From the NCBI GenBank assembly GCA_030672445.1, contig DAOVGK010000002.1, positions 1 to 18,836 on the forward strand: DNA of 18,836 nt, in the 5' to 3' direction. The notes beneath the pieces were generated by a model. That model was not told where the DNA came from and searched no databases. It worked only from the letters and a program-made list of their open reading frames with translations. The first letter of the stretch is position 1, and the number at the start of each line of letters is the position of its first letter. This document shows positions 437 to 14,208 of the stretch, piece by piece. The position numbers were made by a program, and so were the translations under genes. The DNA comes from Candidatus Aerophobota bacterium. GTDB taxonomy: Bacteria; Aerophobota; Aerophobia; Aerophobales; AE-B3A.

Positions 437-1990
437 CTACCATTTTTGCTCAAAGTTATTCTCCATAGCCTCTTCAAGAACTTCTAAATATCTTTGATAG
501 CCCTCTTCATACAGCCTGATGTTTTCATCCCGGGGAATTACAATAGTGGGTTTTTGCAGGCTAAGTTGAGCCCCTCTTTCAAATAACCTGGCTGATACCT
601 CTTCTACTGGCTCGTCAAGCACTCCTGCCGCAGCAATGTAGGCAGCACCAACCGCTGCACCCTCAGTATGAGGATTGATAAGCTCCTTGCCGTAGACATC
701 CGATCTTATCTGGCTAGCTTCTTCGCCTTTGGAACCGCCCCCGGTAATGGTAATTCTTTTCGGCTCAGCTATTTTCTGCTTTTGCATACCTCTTTGTAAG
801 AGCTCAAAACCATACTTCATAGCATAGGCCACTCCCTCCATTACCGCACGAATCAAATCTTCCTTCTTATTCTTACTCGGATTGTACCCTTTAATATAGA
901 GTTTACCCTGAGGCACATAGGGAACCCTTTGTCCATGGATAAAAGGAACAATGATTTTGCCATTGGACCCTGCCGGCGTATTTCTGGCAACTCTGTTAAG
1001 CATCTCGTAAGTGAATTTACCTTTTCCATAAACCTTCTCGGCGATATAATCTATGGCACTGGCCGCATCGATAATGCAGTGTAGGGGCTGCCTTGGCCCC
1101 CAAGGATGACTAAATCTATCATCAGGAAGAATGAAAGGGTGTAGAGTTCCATCCACGATGGGCTGTTTAACCCTGACGGAAAAGGTGCCTGAGGTACCCA
1201 CACTCTCCAAAAGATAGGCATTATTGCCTAGCATACTACAGGGATTATCTCCTCCTCCACCGAAGACTCTGGTATTTACATCTAAACCTGTCTTTTTAGC
1301 CATCCCCTCTGAAACAGTACCTGCTTGAGAAGTAGAAGGAAGAATCTCGGGTATCCAGCGAGAATTTAATTTCATAATCTTCATTACCAATTCCGACAAT
1401 GTGCCATCTAGTCTTAGATAACCTGAGCCAGAAAGATCAGAAAGTTCTGTTGCCCACATTTTTTCTCGGCTGATTTCCGTCTTTAACCAATCTTTGGGAA
1501 ATAGAATTTGCTCTGTCCTTTTATAAACCTGGGGTAGGTGCCTATAGATCCAGAGCACCTTTGGTCCTTGAAAACCAGGCATAGCATGCATACCAATCTC
1601 TTCAACATAAGCATCTGTTCTAGCAGTCTCTTTGGCTACACTTTCTTCTATATCCTTACATTCCTGAGCACTCCTTTGGCAACACCATAAAATGGCTTCA
1701 TATAAAGGTTGATTATCCTTATCCACTACCACTGCTCCGTGCTGCTGACCAGAAAAAGCAATCCCCTCAACTTCTTTACTTGCAATTCCTGCATTTTTTA
1801 ATAGCCTTTTAGTTGCCTTTATAAATGCCCTTCTCCAGAGAATGGGATCTTGTTGAGCCCAGCTTGGCTTAACCCAGTTCACTTCGTAAACCACACTAGC
1901 AGTTGCCTTAACCTCACCGGTTTCAATATCCAGAAGGACTGCTTTGTACCCCGATGAGCCCACATCACCGCCAATGACATATCTAGCCAT
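437..1990 (-). CDS. FGGY-family carbohydrate kinase, xylulokinase-like
   Basis: This 517-aa protein has the length and layout of FGGY sugar kinases, which transfer phosphate from ATP to a ketose or polyol. Visible motifs are the N-terminal phosphate loop GGDVGSSGYKA (7-17), a xylulokinase-like SGQQHGAVVVD (80-90), AILW..QRS (99-107), TELSDLSGSG (181-190), GGGGDNP with the likely catalytic Asp at 248, GTSGT (265-269), and a C-terminal ITGGGSKG followed by EGAAVGAA. The SGQ-HG block resembles XylB more than glycerol kinase, but AILWCCQRS replaces the usual AILWNDxRS, so the exact sugar is open. It is the last gene of the minus-strand operon with the dehydrogenase and epimerase, which fits oxidation of a polyol to a ketose followed by phosphorylation. 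ATG at 1990 is preceded by a GAGAGG-type ribosome site. Confidence 0.88.
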   Translation of the reverse strand: MARYVIGGDVGSSGYKAVLLDIETGEVKATASVVYEVNWVKPSWAQQDPILWRRAFIKATKRLLKNAGIASKEVEGIAFSGQQHGAVVVDKDNQPLYEAILWCCQRSAQECKDIEESVAKETARTDAYVEEIGMHAMPGFQGPKVLWIYRHLPQVYKRTEQILFPKDWLKTEISREKMWATELSDLSGSGYLRLDGTLSELVMKIMKLNSRWIPEILPSTSQAGTVSEGMAKKTGLDVNTRVFGGGGDNPCSMLGNNAYLLESVGTSGTFSVRVKQPIVDGTLHPFILPDDRFSHPWGPRQPLHCIIDAASAIDYIAEKVYGKGKFTYEMLNRVARNTPAGSNGKIIVPFIHGQRVPYVPQGKLYIKGYNPSKNKKEDLIRAVMEGVAYAMKYGFELLQRGMQKQKIAEPKRITITGGGSKGEEASQIRSDVYGKELINPHTEGAAVGAAYIAAAGVLDEPVEEVSARLFERGAQLSLQKPTIVIPRDENIRLYEEGYQRYLEVLEEAMENNFEQKW

Positions 1991-2039
1991 CCTATTGTCC
2001 TCTCTAATTCTTCCTCATCATATTTTTATTTACAGTTTA

Positions 2040-2170
2040 GCTATCTGGTAAATGCTCAGTAAACGCCGTGTCACATTGAATTTTCAGGGTAGCCGCACTC
2101 TTTAGGGTGCGCAGGCTAAAGCCTGCGACTACCAAAAATGACGGGGTTCACTGAATACTTACGCTATCTG
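2040..2170. mobile_element. 115-bp MITE with IS66-like ends and 8-bp target duplication
   Basis: The element proper is 2048-2162. Its ends are imperfect inverted repeats of 22 bp, 17 positions matching: the left end starts GTAAATGCTCAG (2048) and the right end, read inward on the minus strand, starts GTAAGTATTCAG (2162). It is flanked by the same 8-bp word GCTATCTG at 2040-2047 and 2163-2170, which reads as a target-site duplication. Ends starting GTAA with an 8-bp duplication are the known hallmark of the IS66 family. There is no coding capacity, so this would be a non-autonomous derivative moved in trans. It sits between the epimerase and kinase genes of one operon and contains the palindromic core at 2088-2133. 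Confidence 0.75.
2088..2133. repeat. double-hairpin palindromic core of the MITE
   Basis: Two adjacent hairpins, CGCACTC-TTTA-GGGTGCG (2094-2111, one G-T pair) and CGCAGGC-TAAA-GCCTGCG (2110-2127, perfect), are enclosed by the outer arms GGTAG (2088-2092) and CTACC (2129-2133). The two four-base loops TTTA and TAAA are complementary to each other. The layout predicts a three-way junction or cruciform in DNA and a strong structure in the operon mRNA, resembling REP/BIME-type repeats. Confidence 0.75.
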
Positions 2171-2189
2171 ATTCTATAATAAAAGACGG

Positions 2190-3140
2190 TTAAGTTTTTT
2201 CCCTCTCTTTATTTTTCTTTACCCACCGGGCATATTCTTTCATACCTTGCTCTACTGTATATTGGGGATAGAATCCAAGCTCCTCTTTGGCAAGAGAGAT
2301 GTCCAAAGTCTCTCCGCGAGGAAGGAGTTTGCCCGGCCCTATATCCACCTGAGTAGGTTTATCACTATACTTTTGAGCTAAGCTTATCATCTGGGGGAAA
2401 GAAATCGGCTGCTCAGAACAGATATTTATCGATTTGTGCTTGAGATTTTCAGCCTGGTAGAGAAGATAAGTTCCCTGGGCGGCATCCTTAACATAGGTAA
2501 AACCCAGTCTCTGATCAGCACCCTTCTCCAGTTTTAGATCAGGAAGACCCTCAAGAGGTCCTAAAAGGTTTTTAAACAGCTCAGTTTGCTGGGAAGGAAG
2601 CCTTCCCGCACCAAAGAAAAAGTAAAGGCGAGCACTCCGAAAATCAAGACCATAGTGATTCTCATATTGCTGACCAATGAGCTCCCCGGCCGCCTTGCTG
2701 GCACCATATAGGTCGCCGGGATGAAGAGGATAAGTAAGTTCAGAAGGGTTGTCTCTTACCTCTCCGTACACTGCCCCTGAGCTAGCAAAGAGAAATTTCT
2801 TAATTTTAAAGAGCCTTGCCAGCTCGAGCATATTGACTGTCCCGGTCAGATTTATCATCAGACCCTGGTGAGGATTTCCCCAAAGAGCAGGGTCGGCAGT
2901 TACAGCTACTGTATGGATGATCCCTTCAATCTTATCCTGATAGCGGATAAATACTTCCGTAAGTTTTGGGAAATCGAGCACACTTGCCCGAATAAATGTA
3001 ATCTTATCTTTCACTTCCTTCAGATAATCAAGGTCTTTATCTACCACATCGAGGACTATAACCTCCTTTCCCTCCCTGGCAAATCGGTAGGTAAGCCAGG
3101 ACCCTAATTGTCCATAACCTCCAGTGATGAGAACAGCCAT
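2190..3140 (-). CDS. NAD-dependent epimerase/dehydratase (extended SDR, UDP-glucose 4-epimerase-like)
   Basis: The 316-aa protein carries the N-terminal Rossmann motif TGGYGQLG (6-13), an acidic residue ending beta-2 (Asp31, NAD preference), the active-site serines in FASSGAVYGE (118-127) and the catalytic pair Tyr145/Lys149 in YGASK. This is the extended short-chain dehydrogenase fold that acts on nucleotide sugars or related sugars. In known family members the C-terminal third binds substrate; here it gives no clear specificity. The gene lies 28 bp after the Zn-dehydrogenase and upstream of the FGGY kinase. An AAGGAG ribosome site sits a few bases before the ATG at 3140. Given these neighbours it may be a sugar-lactone or polyol dehydrogenase/epimerase rather than a cell-envelope enzyme; that is inference. 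Confidence 0.88.
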   Translation of the reverse strand: MAVLITGGYGQLGSWLTYRFAREGKEVIVLDVVDKDLDYLKEVKDKITFIRASVLDFPKLTEVFIRYQDKIEGIIHTVAVTADPALWGNPHQGLMINLTGTVNMLELARLFKIKKFLFASSGAVYGEVRDNPSELTYPLHPGDLYGASKAAGELIGQQYENHYGLDFRSARLYFFFGAGRLPSQQTELFKNLLGPLEGLPDLKLEKGADQRLGFTYVKDAAQGTYLLYQAENLKHKSINICSEQPISFPQMISLAQKYSDKPTQVDIGPGKLLPRGETLDISLAKEELGFYPQYTVEQGMKEYARWVKKNKEREKT

Positions 3141-4822: not shown

Positions 4823-6214
4823 ATGAGCCTCTGGGCCGAAAGATTCACTGAGGAGACCGATGAGCTGGTGAAGGATTTCACCTCCTCTATTGACGTAGAT
4901 AAGAAACTCTACCGCTACGATATAGCCGGGAGCATTGCTCATGTCAAAATGCTCTCCAAGGTGGGAATCATCGAGGAAAAGGAGGCTCAAAAGATCATCC
5001 TGGCCCTGGAAGAGATAAAAGAAAACTTAGATAAGGGAAAGCTTGGCTTCAGCGGGAAAGAGGACATTCATATGGCTATAGAGGAGGAGGTAATAAGAAG
5101 AGCCGGGGATGCTGGCAAAAAGCTTCACACGGCAAGATCCAGAAATGACCAGATAGCCCTGGATGAAAGACTTTTCTTGAGAGAGGAGATAAGCGAAATT
5201 CTCCGCCTCATAGCTACGTTTCAAAAGGCGATCCTTGAGCTTGCCGAAAAAAATAGGGAAGTTATCCTTCCGGGCTATACGCACCTACAATATGCCCAGC
5301 CAGTTCTTTTCTCTCACCACCTTTTAGCTTATTTTTGGATGCTACAACGGGATAAACTACGGTTAAAAGACTGCTATGAGAGAGTCAATGTCCTACCCCT
5401 GGGGGTAGGAGCTCTGGCTGGAACGTCTTTACCCATTGATAGAGACTATGTGGCCAGGCTTTTAAATTTTCCCCTCATTACTGAGAATAGTATGGATACC
5501 GTGAGTGACCGTGATTATGTCATTGAATTCTTATGTTGTGCGGCTCTTCTAATGATGCATCTTTCCCGTCTCTCAGAGGATCTCATCCTCTGGTCATCTC
5601 CTGCCTTTTCCTTTGTTGAAATAAGTGATGCCTTTACCACCGGCTCCAGCCTTATGCCGCATAAAAAGAATCCTGATGCGGCCGAACTCACCCGGGCAAA
5701 AACGGCCAGAGTTTATGGAAATCTTTTCTCTCTTCTCACCGCCATGAAAGCTCTTCCCCTTTCCTACAATCGAGACCTACAGGAAGACAAATCTTCCTTA
5801 TTTGAGGCGGTTAAGATTATCAAACAATGTCTAAAACTTTACCCCAGGATGATGGGTAAGATAAAGCTAAAGCCTGAGAATATGAGAAAACAGGCCCAAA
5901 AAGGCTTTTTCGCTGCTACAGACCTGGCCGATTATCTGGTAGAGAAAGGTGTTCCTTTCCGAGAAGCTCACGGAATGGTGGGCAAATTGGTTAAGCACTG
6001 TTTAAAAGAAAACAAGAGTTTTGAGGATCTAACTTTGAAAGATTATGGGAAGATTTCTCCCCTTTTTGAGGCCGATGTTTTCCAGAGGATAAGGCTGGAA
6101 GAATCTGTTTTTAATAAAGAATCAAGCGGGGGTACCGGAAAAAAGTCCCTGGCCAGACAGATAAAACTGGCTAAGGAGAAACTGGAGGAAGGAGAAAACC
6201 CCCTTGCCAGCTAA
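4823..6214 (+). CDS. argH: argininosuccinate lyase
   Basis: ArgH cleaves argininosuccinate to arginine and fumarate, the last step of arginine synthesis. The 463-aa length is typical. The fumarase/aspartase superfamily signature GSSLMPHKKNPD lies at 274-285 with the mobile catalytic serine Ser275/276. Other conserved blocks are TARSRNDQ (103-110), GYTHLQYAQP with the catalytic His154 (151-160) and NRDLQEDK (316-323). The start ATGAGCCTCTGGGCCGAAAG gives the expected MSLWxxRF N-terminus and is preceded by GGGAGG. The stop overlaps the start of the downstream lysA-dapF gene by 11 bp, implying translational coupling. No argG lies in the window. Confidence 0.97.
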   Translation: MSLWAERFTEETDELVKDFTSSIDVDKKLYRYDIAGSIAHVKMLSKVGIIEEKEAQKIILALEEIKENLDKGKLGFSGKEDIHMAIEEEVIRRAGDAGKKLHTARSRNDQIALDERLFLREEISEILRLIATFQKAILELAEKNREVILPGYTHLQYAQPVLFSHHLLAYFWMLQRDKLRLKDCYERVNVLPLGVGALAGTSLPIDRDYVARLLNFPLITENSMDTVSDRDYVIEFLCCAALLMMHLSRLSEDLILWSSPAFSFVEISDAFTTGSSLMPHKKNPDAAELTRAKTARVYGNLFSLLTAMKALPLSYNRDLQEDKSSLFEAVKIIKQCLKLYPRMMGKIKLKPENMRKQAQKGFFAATDLADYLVEKGVPFREAHGMVGKLVKHCLKENKSFEDLTLKDYGKISPLFEADVFQRIRLEESVFNKESSGGTGKKSLARQIKLAKEKLEEGENPLAS

Positions 6215-8357
6215 TAGAAAAAGCTATTTTCACTATAAGGAGGGAGAACTTTTCTCTGAAGAAGTGGCGCTCGGCCAGGTGGCTGAGGAGATAGGGACTC
6301 CCCTTTATCTTTACAGCTATAATAGCTTAATTGGTGGTTACAGGGAGGTTTCCCATGCCTTCAGTAAGCTCTCCCCCTTAATTTGTTATTCATTGAAGGC
6401 CAATGGAAATCTTACCCTTTGCCGGATTCTGGCTGCCGAAGGTGCTGGAGCAGACGTTGTCTCGGGAGGAGAGCTATACAAAGCCCTTCAGGCTGGATTC
6501 CCTCCTCAAAAAATAGTTTTCGCTGGACCGGGGAAAAAAGAAGAGGAGATAGAATACGCCTTAAGAGAGAATATCTTTATGTTTAACGTGGAGTCAGAAG
6601 GAGAGTTAAGATTAATAGAAAATCTCAGCCAAAGATTGAACCACTCCGCCAGAATCTCCTTGCGCATAAATCCCGATGTGGATGCTAAAACTCACCGCTA
6701 CATCACCACCGGTAAGAGGGAAAATAAGTTCGGTCTTGAATTTGATGAGGCAGAGAAACTATACTCCCAGATTAAAAAATCGCCCCTCTTAGAGCCGATA
6801 GGGATTCATTTTCATCTCGGCTCCCAGATAACCAGCCTTCACCCTTATCTTAGGGCTCTGGAAAAGATCCTGGATTTTCTTGAACTACTTAAAGAAAAGG
6901 GGCTGAACCTAAAATATCTCGATATGGGAGGGGGATTTGGCATCAGCTATGAGGAAGGAAAGCTCCCTTTAAACATTAAGGATCTAGCAGAAAAAATCTA
7001 TTCATTGATAAAGAAGAGCCGGGCAAAATTAATCCTTGAGCCAGGAAGATTCCTGGTGGGACCGGCCGGGGTCTTAATCACTCAGGTACTTTATAAAAAG
7101 AAGAGAGGAAAAAAGAGATTTATCATTGTAGATGCGGGGATGAACGATCTCATTAGACCATCCCTTTATGGAGCCTATCACCAGATAAAAAAACTAAAAG
7201 AACCTCATGAGGTGGATTCCCCTGAGGTAGTGGATGTAGTAGGTCCTGTCTGTGAGTCGGGAGATTTTTTTGCTCGGGAAAGAAAGCTTCCCCCAATCAC
7301 GGAAGGAGAGTATCTGGCCATCATGGATACCGGAGCCTATTGCTTTAGCATGAGTTTTACTTACAATGCTCGGCCCAGACCAGCAGAAGTGTTGGTGAAG
7401 GAGGATCGCTGGTGGATAATTCGAGACAGGGAAACTTATAAAGATCTGGTTAAGAAAGAGTCCATTCCTGAGAAATTATTCTTTTCCTTTAGAGATTCTT
7501 CTCTGAGTTCTAAATCTCGCTCCCTGAGGGAAAAGAAAGCTCTTCCTGGTCCCATCCCTTTCATCAAGATGCAGGGAAGTGGCAATGACTTTATCGTCAT
7601 TGATAACCGCTCTCATCTTATCAAGAATAGAGCTGAATTTGCCAGAAGAGTATGTCCCAGAAAGACCGGCATCGGAGCAGATGGAGTTCTACTTCTGGAA
7701 AAGTCTCGGGTGGCCGATTTTAAAATGCGTATCTTCAATCCTGATGGCAGCGAGCCGGCAATGTGTGGAAATGGAGCCCGATGCATAGCTAGATTTGCCC
7801 ACCTTAAGAAAATCGCAGGGGAAAAGTGTTCTTTTGAGACCTTATCAGGAAAAATTTTCTCTCAGGTAAAAAAAGATGGGGTTCGCATAAGAATGAAAGA
7901 CCCTTCCCCTTCACACTTAAACTTAGAGATAAACCTGGGGGATAGCTCCTATAAGGGCCATTTTCTGGATACAGGAGTGCTTCACTTTGTTCTCTTTGTC
8001 CCGCAGGTAGAAAAGATCAATCTTCCCGAAATAGGATCCCGGATAAGATACCATAGAAAGTTTCAGCCAGAGGGCACCAATGTTGACTTTGCCGAAATAA
8101 AGAATGAGAATGTGAGGATGAGAACCTATGAAAGGGGAGTGGAGGCGGAGACTTTAAGTTGCGGTACCGGAGCAGTAGCTACTGCTATAGCGGCAAATCT
8201 TGTCTACACCCTCAGTTCTCCGGTGAAGATAAAAACCCCCGGAGGAGACCTGAAGGTCTATTTTCACAAATCAGGCCCCCATAAATTTACGGAGGTTTTC
8301 CTGGAGGGTAAGGCAGAAGTGGTATATGAGGGAAAATGGGAAAGGGAGGTTAACTAA
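6204..8357 (+). CDS. lysA-dapF: bifunctional diaminopimelate decarboxylase / diaminopimelate epimerase (LysA-DapF fusion)
   Basis: One uninterrupted 717-aa frame encodes two lysine-pathway enzymes. Residues 1 to about 420 are a PLP-dependent LysA: Lys65 in YSLKANGN binds PLP, followed by HFHLGSQI (202-209), GGGFG (242-246), EPGR (279-282), Cys350 in GPVCESGDF and YNARPRP (387-393). Residues about 449-717 are a complete DapF: QGSGNDF (457-463), the active-site pair Cys521 (MCGNGARC) and Cys653 (SCGTGA). A linker of about 28 Ser/Arg/Lys-rich residues (421-448) joins them. DapF makes meso-DAP from LL-DAP and LysA decarboxylates it to lysine, so consecutive steps are joined; meso-DAP is also a peptidoglycan precursor. 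The start is TTG at 6204 with GGAGGAAGGAG upstream, inside the end of argH; the stop overlaps dapA (TAATG). One oddity is Leu593 where DapF usually has Pro (TGVLH for TGVPH). Confidence 0.95.
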   Translation: MPANRKSYFHYKEGELFSEEVALGQVAEEIGTPLYLYSYNSLIGGYREVSHAFSKLSPLICYSLKANGNLTLCRILAAEGAGADVVSGGELYKALQAGFPPQKIVFAGPGKKEEEIEYALRENIFMFNVESEGELRLIENLSQRLNHSARISLRINPDVDAKTHRYITTGKRENKFGLEFDEAEKLYSQIKKSPLLEPIGIHFHLGSQITSLHPYLRALEKILDFLELLKEKGLNLKYLDMGGGFGISYEEGKLPLNIKDLAEKIYSLIKKSRAKLILEPGRFLVGPAGVLITQVLYKKKRGKKRFIIVDAGMNDLIRPSLYGAYHQIKKLKEPHEVDSPEVVDVVGPVCESGDFFARERKLPPITEGEYLAIMDTGAYCFSMSFTYNARPRPAEVLVKEDRWWIIRDRETYKDLVKKESIPEKLFFSFRDSSLSSKSRSLREKKALPGPIPFIKMQGSGNDFIVIDNRSHLIKNRAEFARRVCPRKTGIGADGVLLLEKSRVADFKMRIFNPDGSEPAMCGNGARCIARFAHLKKIAGEKCSFETLSGKIFSQVKKDGVRIRMKDPSPSHLNLEINLGDSSYKGHFLDTGVLHFVLFVPQVEKINLPEIGSRIRYHRKFQPEGTNVDFAEIKNENVRMRTYERGVEAETLSCGTGAVATAIAANLVYTLSSPVKIKTPGGDLKVYFHKSGPHKFTEVFLEGKAEVVYEGKWEREVN

Positions 8358-9226
8358 TGTTCAAAGGATGTTATGTAGCCACAGTTACTCCTTTCAAAGG
8401 GGGAAAGGTAGATGAGGATAGTTTCCGCAAGCTCATCGGGTTTTGTCTGGAAAAGGGAGTGGATGGAATAGTTCCCTGTGGAACCACGGGAGAGTCACCT
8501 ACCCTATCCTTTAACGAACATAAACGATTGATAGAGATAACTGTAAAGGAGGTCAATCATCGAGTTCCAGTAATGGCCGGGACTGGTTCCAACAACACCC
8601 ATGAGGCCGAGGAGTTAACTCAATTTGCCAAGAAGGCTGGTGCAGATGCTGCCCTGGTAATCACTCCTTATTATAATAAACCTACCTCCAAGGGTCTGGA
8701 AGCTCATTACCGGAAATTGGCGGTTATTGGCCTTCCTCTTATTATCTACAATGTTCCCTCACGCACGGGAGTAAATATTGATGCGGCATTGGTGGCTAAA
8801 TTAAGTAAGCTCCCCCACATAGCAGGCATTAAAGAGGCAAGTGGCAATATGGACCAGGTATCCAGTATTGTGTCTTTATCCGACTCTAACTTTTCGGTCC
8901 TTTCCGGAAATGACTCTCATACTCTGCCCATTCTATCTCTTGGTGGTGTGGGGGTAGTATCGGTGGTAGCCAACATCATACCCCAAGAGATGAGTCAAAT
9001 GGTAGACGCTTACTTAAAGGGAAAGATCAGCAAGGCAAGGGAGCTTCACTACAAGACATATCCCCTCTGCCAGGCTATGTTCATCGAGACCAATCCCCTT
9101 CCCATAAAGACAGCCATGGCCCGTCTGGGGATGATTGAGCCAGAGTGGAGACTTCCTCTAGATGGGATGAAAAAGGAGAATGAGAAAAGGTTGGAGAAGG
9201 CTCTGGCTGACTATGGACTCCTTTAA
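8357..9226 (+). CDS. dapA: 4-hydroxy-tetrahydrodipicolinate synthase
   Basis: DapA condenses pyruvate with aspartate semialdehyde, the first committed step of the DAP-lysine pathway. The 289-aa length is normal for this cytoplasmic TIM-barrel lyase. The active site is fully present: CGTTGESPTL (41-50, Thr43/Thr44), TPYYNKP (103-109), Tyr131 and Arg136 in YNVPSRTG (131-138), and the Schiff-base Lys159 in GIKEASG (157-163). ATG overlaps the stop of the fused gene by one base, so the two are translationally coupled. No dapB or dapL follows, so the remaining DAP steps must be encoded elsewhere. Confidence 0.97.
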   Translation: MFKGCYVATVTPFKGGKVDEDSFRKLIGFCLEKGVDGIVPCGTTGESPTLSFNEHKRLIEITVKEVNHRVPVMAGTGSNNTHEAEELTQFAKKAGADAALVITPYYNKPTSKGLEAHYRKLAVIGLPLIIYNVPSRTGVNIDAALVAKLSKLPHIAGIKEASGNMDQVSSIVSLSDSNFSVLSGNDSHTLPILSLGGVGVVSVVANIIPQEMSQMVDAYLKGKISKARELHYKTYPLCQAMFIETNPLPIKTAMARLGMIEPEWRLPLDGMKKENEKRLEKALADYGLL

Positions 9227-12807: not shown

Positions 12808-13881
12808 TCACTCCTGTTTGCCAAATTCCATGGCCTGGGTGAGGATATCCGAAAAATCGGGGTAGGAGGCCAGCTCAACATAGTCTACGCCTTCGGAAAT
12901 TTTCTCCGTTTGCTTACGGTCTTTTTCTGAGACCAGAGCCATGATTGCCCCCAGACTTGCCGCATTGCCTACACTCCTCACTTTAGCTTTGGGAAAAGTA
13001 GGGATAAGACCAATCAGATGAGCACTTTCAGGGTTAATATAGCTTCCAAATGCTCCGGCCAGGAGAACCTCATCTACCTCGTCTCTTTCTACCCCTAGGG
13101 AGGTAAGGAGAATTTTTATCCCCGAGCAAATAGCCCCCTTGGCCAATTGAAGCTCTCTTATGTCTTTTTGGGTGAGAATAATAGGGATTCCATCTTGAGC
13201 TTTTTCTTTTTCTACCAGAAGAAAACCAATATGGTCATTCTTCGTTATTATCCTGCTCGACCATTCTTTTGCTTTAGAAGAAGGCTTGAGGCGTCCCGAG
13301 CTATCAATGATCTTTTCCTTTAGGAGCTGGCTGGAGGCGTCTATCAGCCCGCTGCCACAAATCCCTCTGGCCCTGCCTCCTCCTATCACCTCTACCTCTA
13401 TCTTCCCTTCCTCGAGTCTTACCTTCTCTATAGCCTCTCTTTCTCCCAGATGTCTTTCCAGGCGGGATAGATCCGCAATTTGGTCTTTAAGGCTGGGGGG
13501 AGAAAGAGAAAGGTATATTTTCTTAATTACAGGCTTGATTTTTATTTTTCTGTTTATTCTGTCAGTTAAAATTTTAGGAAAGGAAATTAAGGAAAGGGGA
13601 TGAATCTCAACCTCAACATCGCCTTCAACAGCTACCTGGCAAGCCAGGCGAACATCGTTCTCTACCGACTGGAGATGTTTTTTTTCAACCGAAGTTAAGG
13701 GAGAAAGTTTCCCTTTGACCTTAATCCTACACTTTCCACATATCCCTTTTCCGCCGCAGGGAAAATTTACCTTAACTCCTGCTTTTTCTATCGCTTCTCT
13801 AATAGGAGTTTTAATGGAGGTGAGAATCTCCTTTCTTTCCGGTTGAAAAACTACTCTTACTTTTCTGTTTTTCATAAACAA
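12808..13881 (-). CDS. RACE-family ferredoxin/ASKHA protein (corrinoid-protein reductive activator), internally shortened
   Basis: Residues about 8-95 form a [2Fe-2S] ferredoxin with Cys42, Cys48, Cys51 and Cys81 (PCGGKGICGKC). Residues about 115-145 match the small linker/middle region (LSLSPPSLKDQIADLSRL). From about 150 the sequence jumps to the late part of the ASKHA domain: AIEKVRL, GGGRARGICGSGLIDA (167-182), ILTQKDIRELQLAKGAI, LLAGAFGSYINPESA and SVGNAAS. Family members, which reductively reactivate corrinoid proteins using ATP, are about 600 aa and carry VDIGTTT-type phosphate loops in between; these are absent. At 357 aa it may be unable to bind ATP. TTG at 13881 abuts the thioredoxin stop; ATG at 13875 is an equally likely start. 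Convergent with rpoZ. Confidence 0.85.
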   Translation of the reverse strand: MFMKNRKVRVVFQPERKEILTSIKTPIREAIEKAGVKVNFPCGGKGICGKCRIKVKGKLSPLTSVEKKHLQSVENDVRLACQVAVEGDVEVEIHPLSLISFPKILTDRINRKIKIKPVIKKIYLSLSPPSLKDQIADLSRLERHLGEREAIEKVRLEEGKIEVEVIGGGRARGICGSGLIDASSQLLKEKIIDSSGRLKPSSKAKEWSSRIITKNDHIGFLLVEKEKAQDGIPIILTQKDIRELQLAKGAICSGIKILLTSLGVERDEVDEVLLAGAFGSYINPESAHLIGLIPTFPKAKVRSVGNAASLGAIMALVSEKDRKQTEKISEGVDYVELASYPDFSDILTQAMEFGKQE

Positions 13882-14208
13882 TTAACTTATCAATCTCATT
13901 AAACGACGCACAAGTTCCTTTTTTGACGTCATTCCGATTACCCGATCAACCACTTCTCCATTTTTAAAAAAAAAGTAAGCAGGGATGCCTCGTACTCCAT
14001 ATTCAGCTGCTTTAGAGGCGCTTTCATCTACATTTAATTTGTAAATATCAGCCTTGTCTTTAAACTCTTTGCTTAGCTCTTCAATCATAGGTTCCATCTT
14101 TAAGCAAGGGCTGCACCATTTAGCCCAGAAATCCACCACTACTGGTTTATCTGCTTTTAATACCTTTTCCTGAAAATCTTCCTCCTTGAGCTCTTTAACC
14201 TCGCTCAT
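13882..14208 (-). CDS. trxA: thioredoxin
   Basis: This 108-aa protein has the thioredoxin fold signature: VVVDFWAKWCSPC (23-35) with redox cysteines Cys32 and Cys35, and the cis-proline Pro76 in GIPAYFFF. The active site is WCSPC rather than the standard WCGPC, a change seen in some thioredoxins and likely to shift the redox potential. There is no signal peptide, so it acts in the cytoplasm. GGGAGGG lies just upstream of the ATG at 14208. Its stop touches the start of the RACE-like gene, so the two are co-translated, suggesting the thioredoxin may serve that redox protein; this is inference. Confidence 0.95.
   Translation of the reverse strand: MSEVKELKEEDFQEKVLKADKPVVVDFWAKWCSPCLKMEPMIEELSKEFKDKADIYKLNVDESASKAAEYGVRGIPAYFFFKNGEVVDRVIGMTSKKELVRRLMRLIS

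What the first reader, a model, noticed from the sequence alone, without database searches (positions are those of the whole stretch)
2040..2170. IS66-type miniature element inside a sugar operon
A 115-bp non-coding element has GTAA-starting inverted ends (17/22 positions matching) and a clean 8-bp duplication GCTATCTG on both sides. GTAA ends and 8-bp duplications are the established IS66 hallmark. The exact duplication suggests a fairly recent insertion. No IS66 transposase is present, so mobilisation would be in trans.
Basis: partly seen in the sequence, partly recalled or inferred. Interest (0 to 1): 0.7.

Follow-up and report, generated by a model that had tools for sequence, protein, structure and literature searches.

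The report
Mobile miniature element with IS66-type ends
A 115-base piece of DNA between two sugar genes is one copy of a small, gene-less jumping element that has spread in a little-known bacterial lineage, probably by borrowing another element's enzyme; the kind is known, while the missing enzyme and the reach into other phyla are mildly interesting.

Summary
Window 2048-2162 is 115 bp with imperfect inverted ends (17/22) and an exact 8-bp repeat GCTATCTG on both sides; 0 of 200 shuffled windows had such a structure. It is one copy of a family. The same-genus genome G002 (Candidatus Aerophobetes Ae_b3b) has at least 12 near-full copies. Of 61 inward-facing end pairs in held loci, 21 have an exact 8-bp duplication, against 0 of 61 at displaced flanks. 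Of 14 G002 copies tested, two have an exact and one a 7/8 empty site in G001. At the window's own site the G002 ortholog is 189 bp shorter, not 123, so a clean empty site was not shown there. The IS66 reading is supported by the ends: single-ORF IS66 elements end GTAACTATTCAG(C/T)GAA, and published ISDge4 (IS66, ISBst12 group) has GTAACTGCTCAGCA with an 8-bp repeat (PMC12898284, passages). But no IS66 transposase was found in 17 genomes of the order and two others, nor a full-length parent with these ends. Verdict: a real MITE, most likely moved in trans by an ISBst12-type IS66 transposase; a new member of a known kind.

The parts
2040..2047 (.). left copy of the 8-bp target-site duplication GCTATCTG
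   Evidence: exact repeat
2048..2162 (.). 115-bp non-coding miniature element (MITE)
2048..2069 (+). left terminal inverted repeat GTAAATGCTCAGTAAACGCCGT
   Evidence: 17/22 to the right end; 55 matches at up to 3 mismatches to the end consensus in G002, 0 in the reversed-pattern control
2088..2133 (+). palindromic core GGTAGCCGCACTCTTTAGGGTGCGCAGGCTAAAGCCTGCGACTACC, two hairpins closed by a stem
   Evidence: 23-nt arms, 78% complementary; whole element folds with z-score -4.0; similar cores occur without IS66-type ends nearby
2141..2162 (-). right terminal inverted repeat, read inward GTAAGTATTCAGTGAACCCCGT
2163..2170 (.). right copy of the 8-bp target-site duplication GCTATCTG
437..1990 (-). 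FGGY-family carbohydrate kinase, downstream of the element in the direction of transcription
   Evidence: Pfam PF00370 9.7e-53 and PF02782
2190..3140 (-). NAD-dependent epimerase/dehydratase, upstream of the element in the direction of transcription
   Evidence: Pfam PF01370 3.5e-37

Best explanation
[quoted passage not shown] An IS66-type DDE transposase encoded elsewhere would bind the two ends and insert the element with an 8-bp staggered cut, whose repair gives the two copies of GCTATCTG. Shown: structure, copies, 8-bp duplications, empty sites of sister copies. Inferred: the identity of the transposase, its action in trans, and that the insertion is roughly neutral (it lengthens the spacer between epimerase and kinase; the consensus scans predict no promoter or terminator there).
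For: Multi-copy: at least 12 near-full copies at 90-97% identity in G002, a lower bound since 40 of 67 first-look candidates were scored; the window copy is 94.8-98.3% identical to nine of them. Mobility: of 61 inward-facing end pairs, 21 have an 8/8 duplication and 4 have 7/8, while flanks displaced by 20 bp never exceed 5/8; no pair has a 9-bp duplication. Of 14 G002 copies whose joined flanks were searched, seven aligned across the junction in G001 over 190 bp or more: two show exactly one copy of the 8-mer (CTCCTTCG, AAATAGAA), one shows 7/8, four are not clean. IS66 ends: ten loci with PF03050 inside, taken by exact 8-bp duplication and at least 15/22 inverted ends without regard to the window's ends, give 11 of 20 ends beyond the 1% level of the local 22-mer null. 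The single-ORF element L311 (1724 bp, 473 aa, duplication AAATTTTG) ends GTAACTATTCAGCGAA, 14/16 to the window's right end. Published ISDge4 (IS66 family, ISBst12 group), seen to transpose with an 8-bp repeat, has an end GTAACTGCTCAGCA, 12/14 to the window's left end (PMC12898284, passages).
Against: No IS66 transposase (PF03050) in 19 of 19 genomes (17 of the order, plus G080 and G081), while 4 of 14 controls ring; these are genomes of 69-100% completeness, mostly drafts, where repeated IS are often lost. No full-length element with these ends was found: the one 2064-bp case is a MITE with an IS1182 element nested in it. Nine of 20 verified IS66 ends do not pass the 1% level, among them L304 (CGACCTGT...), L308 (GGGACC...) and L313 (9/22, p 0.19); against 22-mers that start GTAA only, the best ends reach 0.5-2% and several are unremarkable. 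The window element has no match to the fetched IS66 loci at E 0.05 or better beyond the short ends (best: 14 bases, E 0.08). Four of seven G001 junctions are not clean. The window's own site has no clean empty ortholog.
Confidence: 0.78

Rival explanations
1. The element is a real MITE, but its ends are moved by another transposase family (IS1182 or an undescribed DDE family) whose ends happen to start GTAA.
For: No IS66 transposase in 19 genomes, most of them rich in these ends, whereas IS1182-type transposases match in 11 of 19 (all below the family's curated cut-off), and one lies between two such ends (L101).
Against: The L101 IS1182 gene lies in its own 1828-bp element with different ends (CAGACTGTGT...), inserted into a MITE: the left 32 bp and right 96 bp match 137-bp MITEs. 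The best IS1182 copy of G002 (C7) has no such ends at 3 or fewer mismatches in the fetched flank. Ends of ISBst12-type IS66 match 12-14 of the first 14-16 bases.
Confidence: 0.16
2. The sequence is not an insertion but a conserved structured RNA, or a REP-type palindrome moved by a REP-associated tyrosine transposase; the 8-mers are coincidence.
For: The element is strongly palindromic (z -4.0, z -3.5). Similar cores occur without IS66-type ends within 160 bp (19 of 38 distinct core copies in held loci). Y1 transposase genes match in 6 of 11 genomes searched.
Against: 21 of 61 end pairs have exact 8-bp duplications and 0 of 61 controls do; empty sites; no Rfam family at gathering level in the window; no core at 3 or fewer substitutions in the ten Y1 loci fetched.
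Confidence: 0.03
3. Besides being a MITE, the insertion has been kept because its hairpin changes expression between epimerase and kinase (attenuation or mRNA processing).
For: It lies within a same-strand gene row and the transcribed strand folds better than shuffles.
Against: No terminator or promoter predicted by simple consensus scans. The family sits at many unrelated sites and is variably present.
Confidence: 0.1

Closest known systems
IS66 family, ISBst12 group (single-ORF elements; ISDge4 of Deinococcus geothermalis)
   Same: GTAA-type ends (published GTAACTGCTCAGCA against the window's GTAAATGCTCAGTA, 12/14) and an 8-bp direct repeat (PMC12898284, passages); single-ORF elements L311 and L312 in G202 and G236 have the ends GTAACTATTCAGCGAA and GTAACTATTCAGTGAA. 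That L311 and L312 belong to the ISBst12 group is my inference from the single ORF
   Different: the window element has no transposase and no match to the fetched IS66 loci beyond the ends; no such element was found in the Aerophobota genomes searched
Bacterial MITEs in general (MITECca01 with IS982-type ends; MITEPye1 with IS1182-type ends; MITEPsy3)
   Same: short, gene-less, inverted ends; MITEPye1 also direct repeats, intergenic sites and long stem-loops (PMC9769881, PMC11578231, PMC6053426; passages)
   Different: those have other proposed partners (IS982, IS1182, ISPsy25); none of the passages I saw describes a MITE with IS66-type ends
IS1182 family
   Same: an IS1182 element sits inside a related MITE in G003 (L101)
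   Different: its own ends (CAGACTGTGT...) are unlike the MITE ends
REP-type palindromes (the name is used from general knowledge)
   Same: the core hairpin is also found without IS66-type ends
   Different: the window unit is bounded by 22-bp inverted ends and an 8-bp duplication

Membership tests
MITE | short (under about 300 bp), no coding capacity | tested here: met
   115 bp, too short for more than 38 codons; no ORF of 90 aa or more overlaps it
MITE | terminal inverted repeats | tested here: met
   17 of 22
MITE | target-site duplication of constant length at many unlike sites | tested here: met
   21 of 61 end pairs 8/8, no 9-bp case, controls 0 of 61
MITE | multiple copies and empty sites | tested here: met
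   at least 12 near-full copies in G002; two exact and one 7/8 empty site in G001, out of seven junction alignments and 14 copies queried. For the window's own copy no clean empty site was found
IS66-derived element | ends that begin GTAA and resemble IS66 ends | tested here: met
   11 of 20 verified IS66 ends beyond the 1% null level; ISDge4 ends in PMC12898284. The GTAA rule itself is recalled, and four of the ten loci (L304, L307, L308, L309) plus L315 lack GTAA at both ends
IS66-derived element | 8-bp target duplication | tested here: met
   the ten IS66 loci were chosen for an 8-bp duplication, so they do not test the length
IS66-derived element | IS66 transposase (PF03050) in the same genome or a close relative | tested here: not met
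   0 of 19 genomes; the window's own assembly is not held
IS66-derived element | subterminal sequence shared with a full-length parent | tested here: inconclusive
   no full-length parent with these ends found; no match beyond the ends to the fetched IS66 loci
IS66-derived element | mobilisation by an IS66 transposase | not testable with these tools
   needs a transposition assay
IS1182-derived element | ends like those of the IS1182 element found in the lineage | tested here: not met
   IS1182 ends in L101 are CAGACTGTGTCACAATTA / CAGACTGTGTTGCAATTA

The most novel reading that the evidence does not exclude
IS66-type ends act as a general vehicle for palindromic cores. In several phyla the same roughly 22-bp ends enclose quite different hairpin cores, some of which also circulate on their own, so a transposase not seen in these genomes has been spreading REP-like palindromes between bacteria and seeding their intergenic RNA hairpins.
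Probability: 0.2. Interest if true: 0.55.

Novelty: new member of a known kind. Interest (0 to 1): 0.35.

Why it matters
It documents a spread MITE family with IS66-type ends in the candidate phylum Aerophobota, with like ends and exact 8-bp duplications also in Cloacimonadota, and it separates two parts that are easily confused: mobile ends, and a palindromic core that also occurs alone. In the held library no MITE with IS66-type ends turned up (searches; listings, plus passages of some papers), but most subscription papers and ISfinder were out of reach. The missing transposase is a concrete question that closed genomes could answer.

Tried and rejected
IS1182 as partner: the 2064-bp element L101 in G003, bounded by the MITE's ends with a 7/8 duplication and holding a broken IS1182 transposase, first looked like the parent. 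The inner IS1182 has its own ends and the outer parts match 137-bp MITEs, so it is a nested insertion and was rejected as parent.

IS66 partner in the lineage: none in 19 genomes. Six of the 19 have PF03050. In the 13 loci fetched there, no IS66 gene lies between two such ends. Two leads stay open: in L256 (G113) the terminus GTAAGCGCTTAGTAAAG lies next to an intact tnpC, and in L267 (G113, near a contig end) an end with one mismatch to the consensus lies 192 bp from a PF03050 match that is below the cut-off (19.9 bits); no transposase could be recognised there.

ORFs inside solo ends in 13 named contigs: apparently ordinary chromosomal genes, judged by eye; they were not run against a family library.

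REP-associated transposase for the core: Y1 genes in 6 of 11 genomes, no core in the ten fetched loci. Viral contigs: no exact match to the end pattern. Rfam at gathering level: no match.

Rows with inverted ends of only 13-14/22 were dropped as chance-level. L300 and L301 are two copies of one element. L312, L305/L275 and L256 were picked because they resembled the end pattern and are no independent test. No other IS family with 8-bp duplications was run as a control. In one search some ends enter more than one pair (L049, L174, L232). In the scan I estimate about 0.5 chance matches in the collection (22-mer with four twofold positions), so a genome with a single match may be chance; likewise single matches, where the reversed pattern gave 4 matches against 193.

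Full report
Observation. The sequence at 2040-2170 is as described: GCTATCTG at 2040-2047 and 2163-2170, and between them 115 bp whose ends match at 17 of 22 positions. No other such structure is in the window, and 0 of 200 dinucleotide-preserving shuffles produced one. The interior 2088-2133 is a palindromic core; the 115-nt strand folds at -40.1 kcal/mol against a shuffle mean of -26.6. The element lies between an epimerase and an FGGY carbohydrate kinase on the minus strand.

Where it comes from. The window's own assembly is not held; the nearest genome G001 shares 36% of its sampled 31-mers. The host is therefore most likely a member of Aerophobota; this is inference.

It is a mobile family. 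In G002 at least 12 near-full copies lie at 90-97% identity to the query (in which 40 of 67 first-look candidates were scored). Nine of them aligned to the window copy give 94.8-98.3% identity. Two core versions exist (GCAGGCTAAAGCCTGC, and one reading GCAGGCTCTGAGCCTTGC), both able to pair by eye. The end consensus occurs 55 times in G002 at up to 3 mismatches and never in the reversed-pattern control. In 19 further genomes it occurs 193 times, in 15 of them, against 4 matches of the reversed pattern. Among the held loci, 61 inward-facing end pairs 60-400 bp apart were examined: 21 have an exact 8-bp direct repeat and 4 have 7/8. Flanks displaced by 20 bp give at most 5/8, and no pair has a 9-bp repeat. 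The other 36 pairs have 6/8 or less; some are alternative pairings of one end, others may be recombined or decayed. Element lengths in the 8/8 set run from 97 to 229 bp. The 8-mers vary, so insertion is not tied to one target sequence.

Empty sites. For 14 G002 copies the flanks were joined without the element and searched in five relatives. In G001 seven matched across the junction over 190 bp or more. Two show exactly one copy of the 8-mer (L041 CTCCTTCG, L046 AAATAGAA) and one shows 7/8 (L019). Three (L038, L056, L044) are diverged or gapped at the junction, and in the seventh (L058) G001 lacks about 50 bp around it. The flanks of L049 match in G001 with largely unalignable sequence between them. 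The remaining copies gave one flank or scattered matches in G001. At the window's own site G002 has epimerase and kinase nearly adjacent (13 nt between stop and start in the sequence printed). Between two conserved anchors the window has 231 bp and G002 has 42: 189 extra bp, of which element plus one duplication explain 123. The alignments stop at short repeats TTTTT(A/C)TTTAC. This is compatible with a deletion in G002 or with further sequence gained in the window, so it neither proves nor refutes the insertion there.

Which family. PF03050 (IS66) is absent from 19 of 19 genomes (17 of the order, plus G080 and G081); the control set rings in 4 of 14. To learn what IS66 ends look like I searched 149 genomes of one phylum (57 with a match), fetched 20 regions, and asked for inverted ends of at least 15/22 with an exact 8-bp duplication around the transposase, without regard to the window's ends. 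Ten of these regions qualify, 20 ends in all. Against all 22-mers of these loci, 11 of 20 ends pass the 1% level; against 22-mers starting with GTAA only, the best are at 0.5-2% and several are unremarkable (nine of the ten loci). So the GTAA start carries much of the likeness, and some IS66 elements (L304, L308, L309) do not even start GTAA. The likeness is clearer for single-ORF IS66 elements: L311 (1724 bp, 473 aa, duplication AAATTTTG) has one end GTAACTATTCAGCGAA (its other end is GTATCTATTCAGCGTA), and the similar L312 (1718 bp, picked by likeness, flanks not duplicated) has GTAACTATTCAGTGAA; these are 14/16 and 15/16 to the window's right end. Independently, PMC12898284 (passages) reports that ISDge4, put by its authors in the ISBst12 group of IS66, transposed with an 8-bp repeat and has the ends GTGACTACTCAGCA and GTAACTGCTCAGCA; the latter is 12/14 to the window's left end. 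Together with the 8-bp duplication this makes an ISBst12-type IS66 transposase the best candidate.

Range. A scan of genome contigs for GTAARTRYTCAGTRAACCCCGT gave 105 stretches (80 rows shown there, the rest). The largest group is one Planctomycetota MAG (M55B116), where many matches sit near contig ends and three 84-85 bp elements were read. Others are Aerophobetes, Cloacimonadota, Omnitrophota, Brocadiaceae and further groups. Exact 8-bp duplications outside the order of G001 were seen in Cloacimonadota (L161, L226, L234), in an unclassified bacterium (L227) and in G081 (L078); in Planctomycetota only 7/8 cases were seen. Single matches may be chance. No viral contig matched.

Core and cargo. 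The core hairpin also occurs apart: of 38 distinct core copies in held loci, 19 have an IS66-type end within 160 bp and 19 do not (the loci were fetched partly because of the ends or the core, so this ratio is biased). Other members of the family carry different interiors, several with a CATTGCGAG palindrome. Hence the ends and the core look separable. How the cores were acquired is not shown.

Mechanism and effect. Most likely the ends are recognised in trans by a DDE transposase and inserted with an 8-bp stagger. In the window the insertion lengthens the epimerase-kinase spacer; no promoter or terminator is predicted by simple scans, and the transcribed strand folds better than shuffles (z -3.5). 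I take it as near-neutral; this was not tested.

Literature. The searches listed no paper that by title or abstract is about a MITE with IS66-type ends, and none with both Aerophobetes and insertion sequence. I saw passages, not whole texts, of PMC3189936, PMC12898284, PMC9769881, PMC8024623, PMC6053426 and PMC11578231; the other papers in those listings were seen as listings only.

Noticed in passing
L101:540-2603 (G003:C20:17439-19502): An IS1182-family element (1828 bp, ends CAGACTGTGT..., transposase broken) is nested inside a related 137-bp-type MITE that itself has a 7/8 duplication.
   Followed up: yes
L004:1370-1523, L108:235-371, L161:684-846, L226:1869-2047: Other elements with the same ends and exact 8-bp duplications carry unrelated interiors; those of L108, L161 and L226 have a CATTGCGAG...GCAATCTC palindrome.
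   Followed up: partly
window 2034-2210 against L115: Relative to the G002 ortholog the window has 189 extra bp, only 123 of which are element plus one duplication; the remaining 66 bp and the different epimerase C-terminus are unexplained.
   Followed up: partly
L267:1309 (G113:C147): An end with one mismatch to the consensus lies 192 bp from a sub-threshold IS66 transposase match near a contig end in a Brocadiaceae MAG; possibly a remnant of a full-length element.
   Followed up: partly
window 6204-8357 (+): One 717-aa ORF joins a decarboxylase (PF02784/PF00278) and a diaminopimelate epimerase (PF01678), apparently a fused lysA-dapF, followed by a dihydrodipicolinate synthase-family gene at 8357-9226.
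   Followed up: no
window 12808-14208 (-): A RACo-like ORF (357 aa, beginning TTG) is directly preceded on the same strand by a 108-aa ORF (13882-14208); they may be one interrupted gene or two genes.
   Followed up: no
   Followed up: partly
G081 (L009, L030, L078): A genome related only at domain level carries a core 96% identical to the window's over 49 bp and elements with alike ends (L078 with an exact 8-bp duplication), although no IS66 transposase was found in it.
   Followed up: partly
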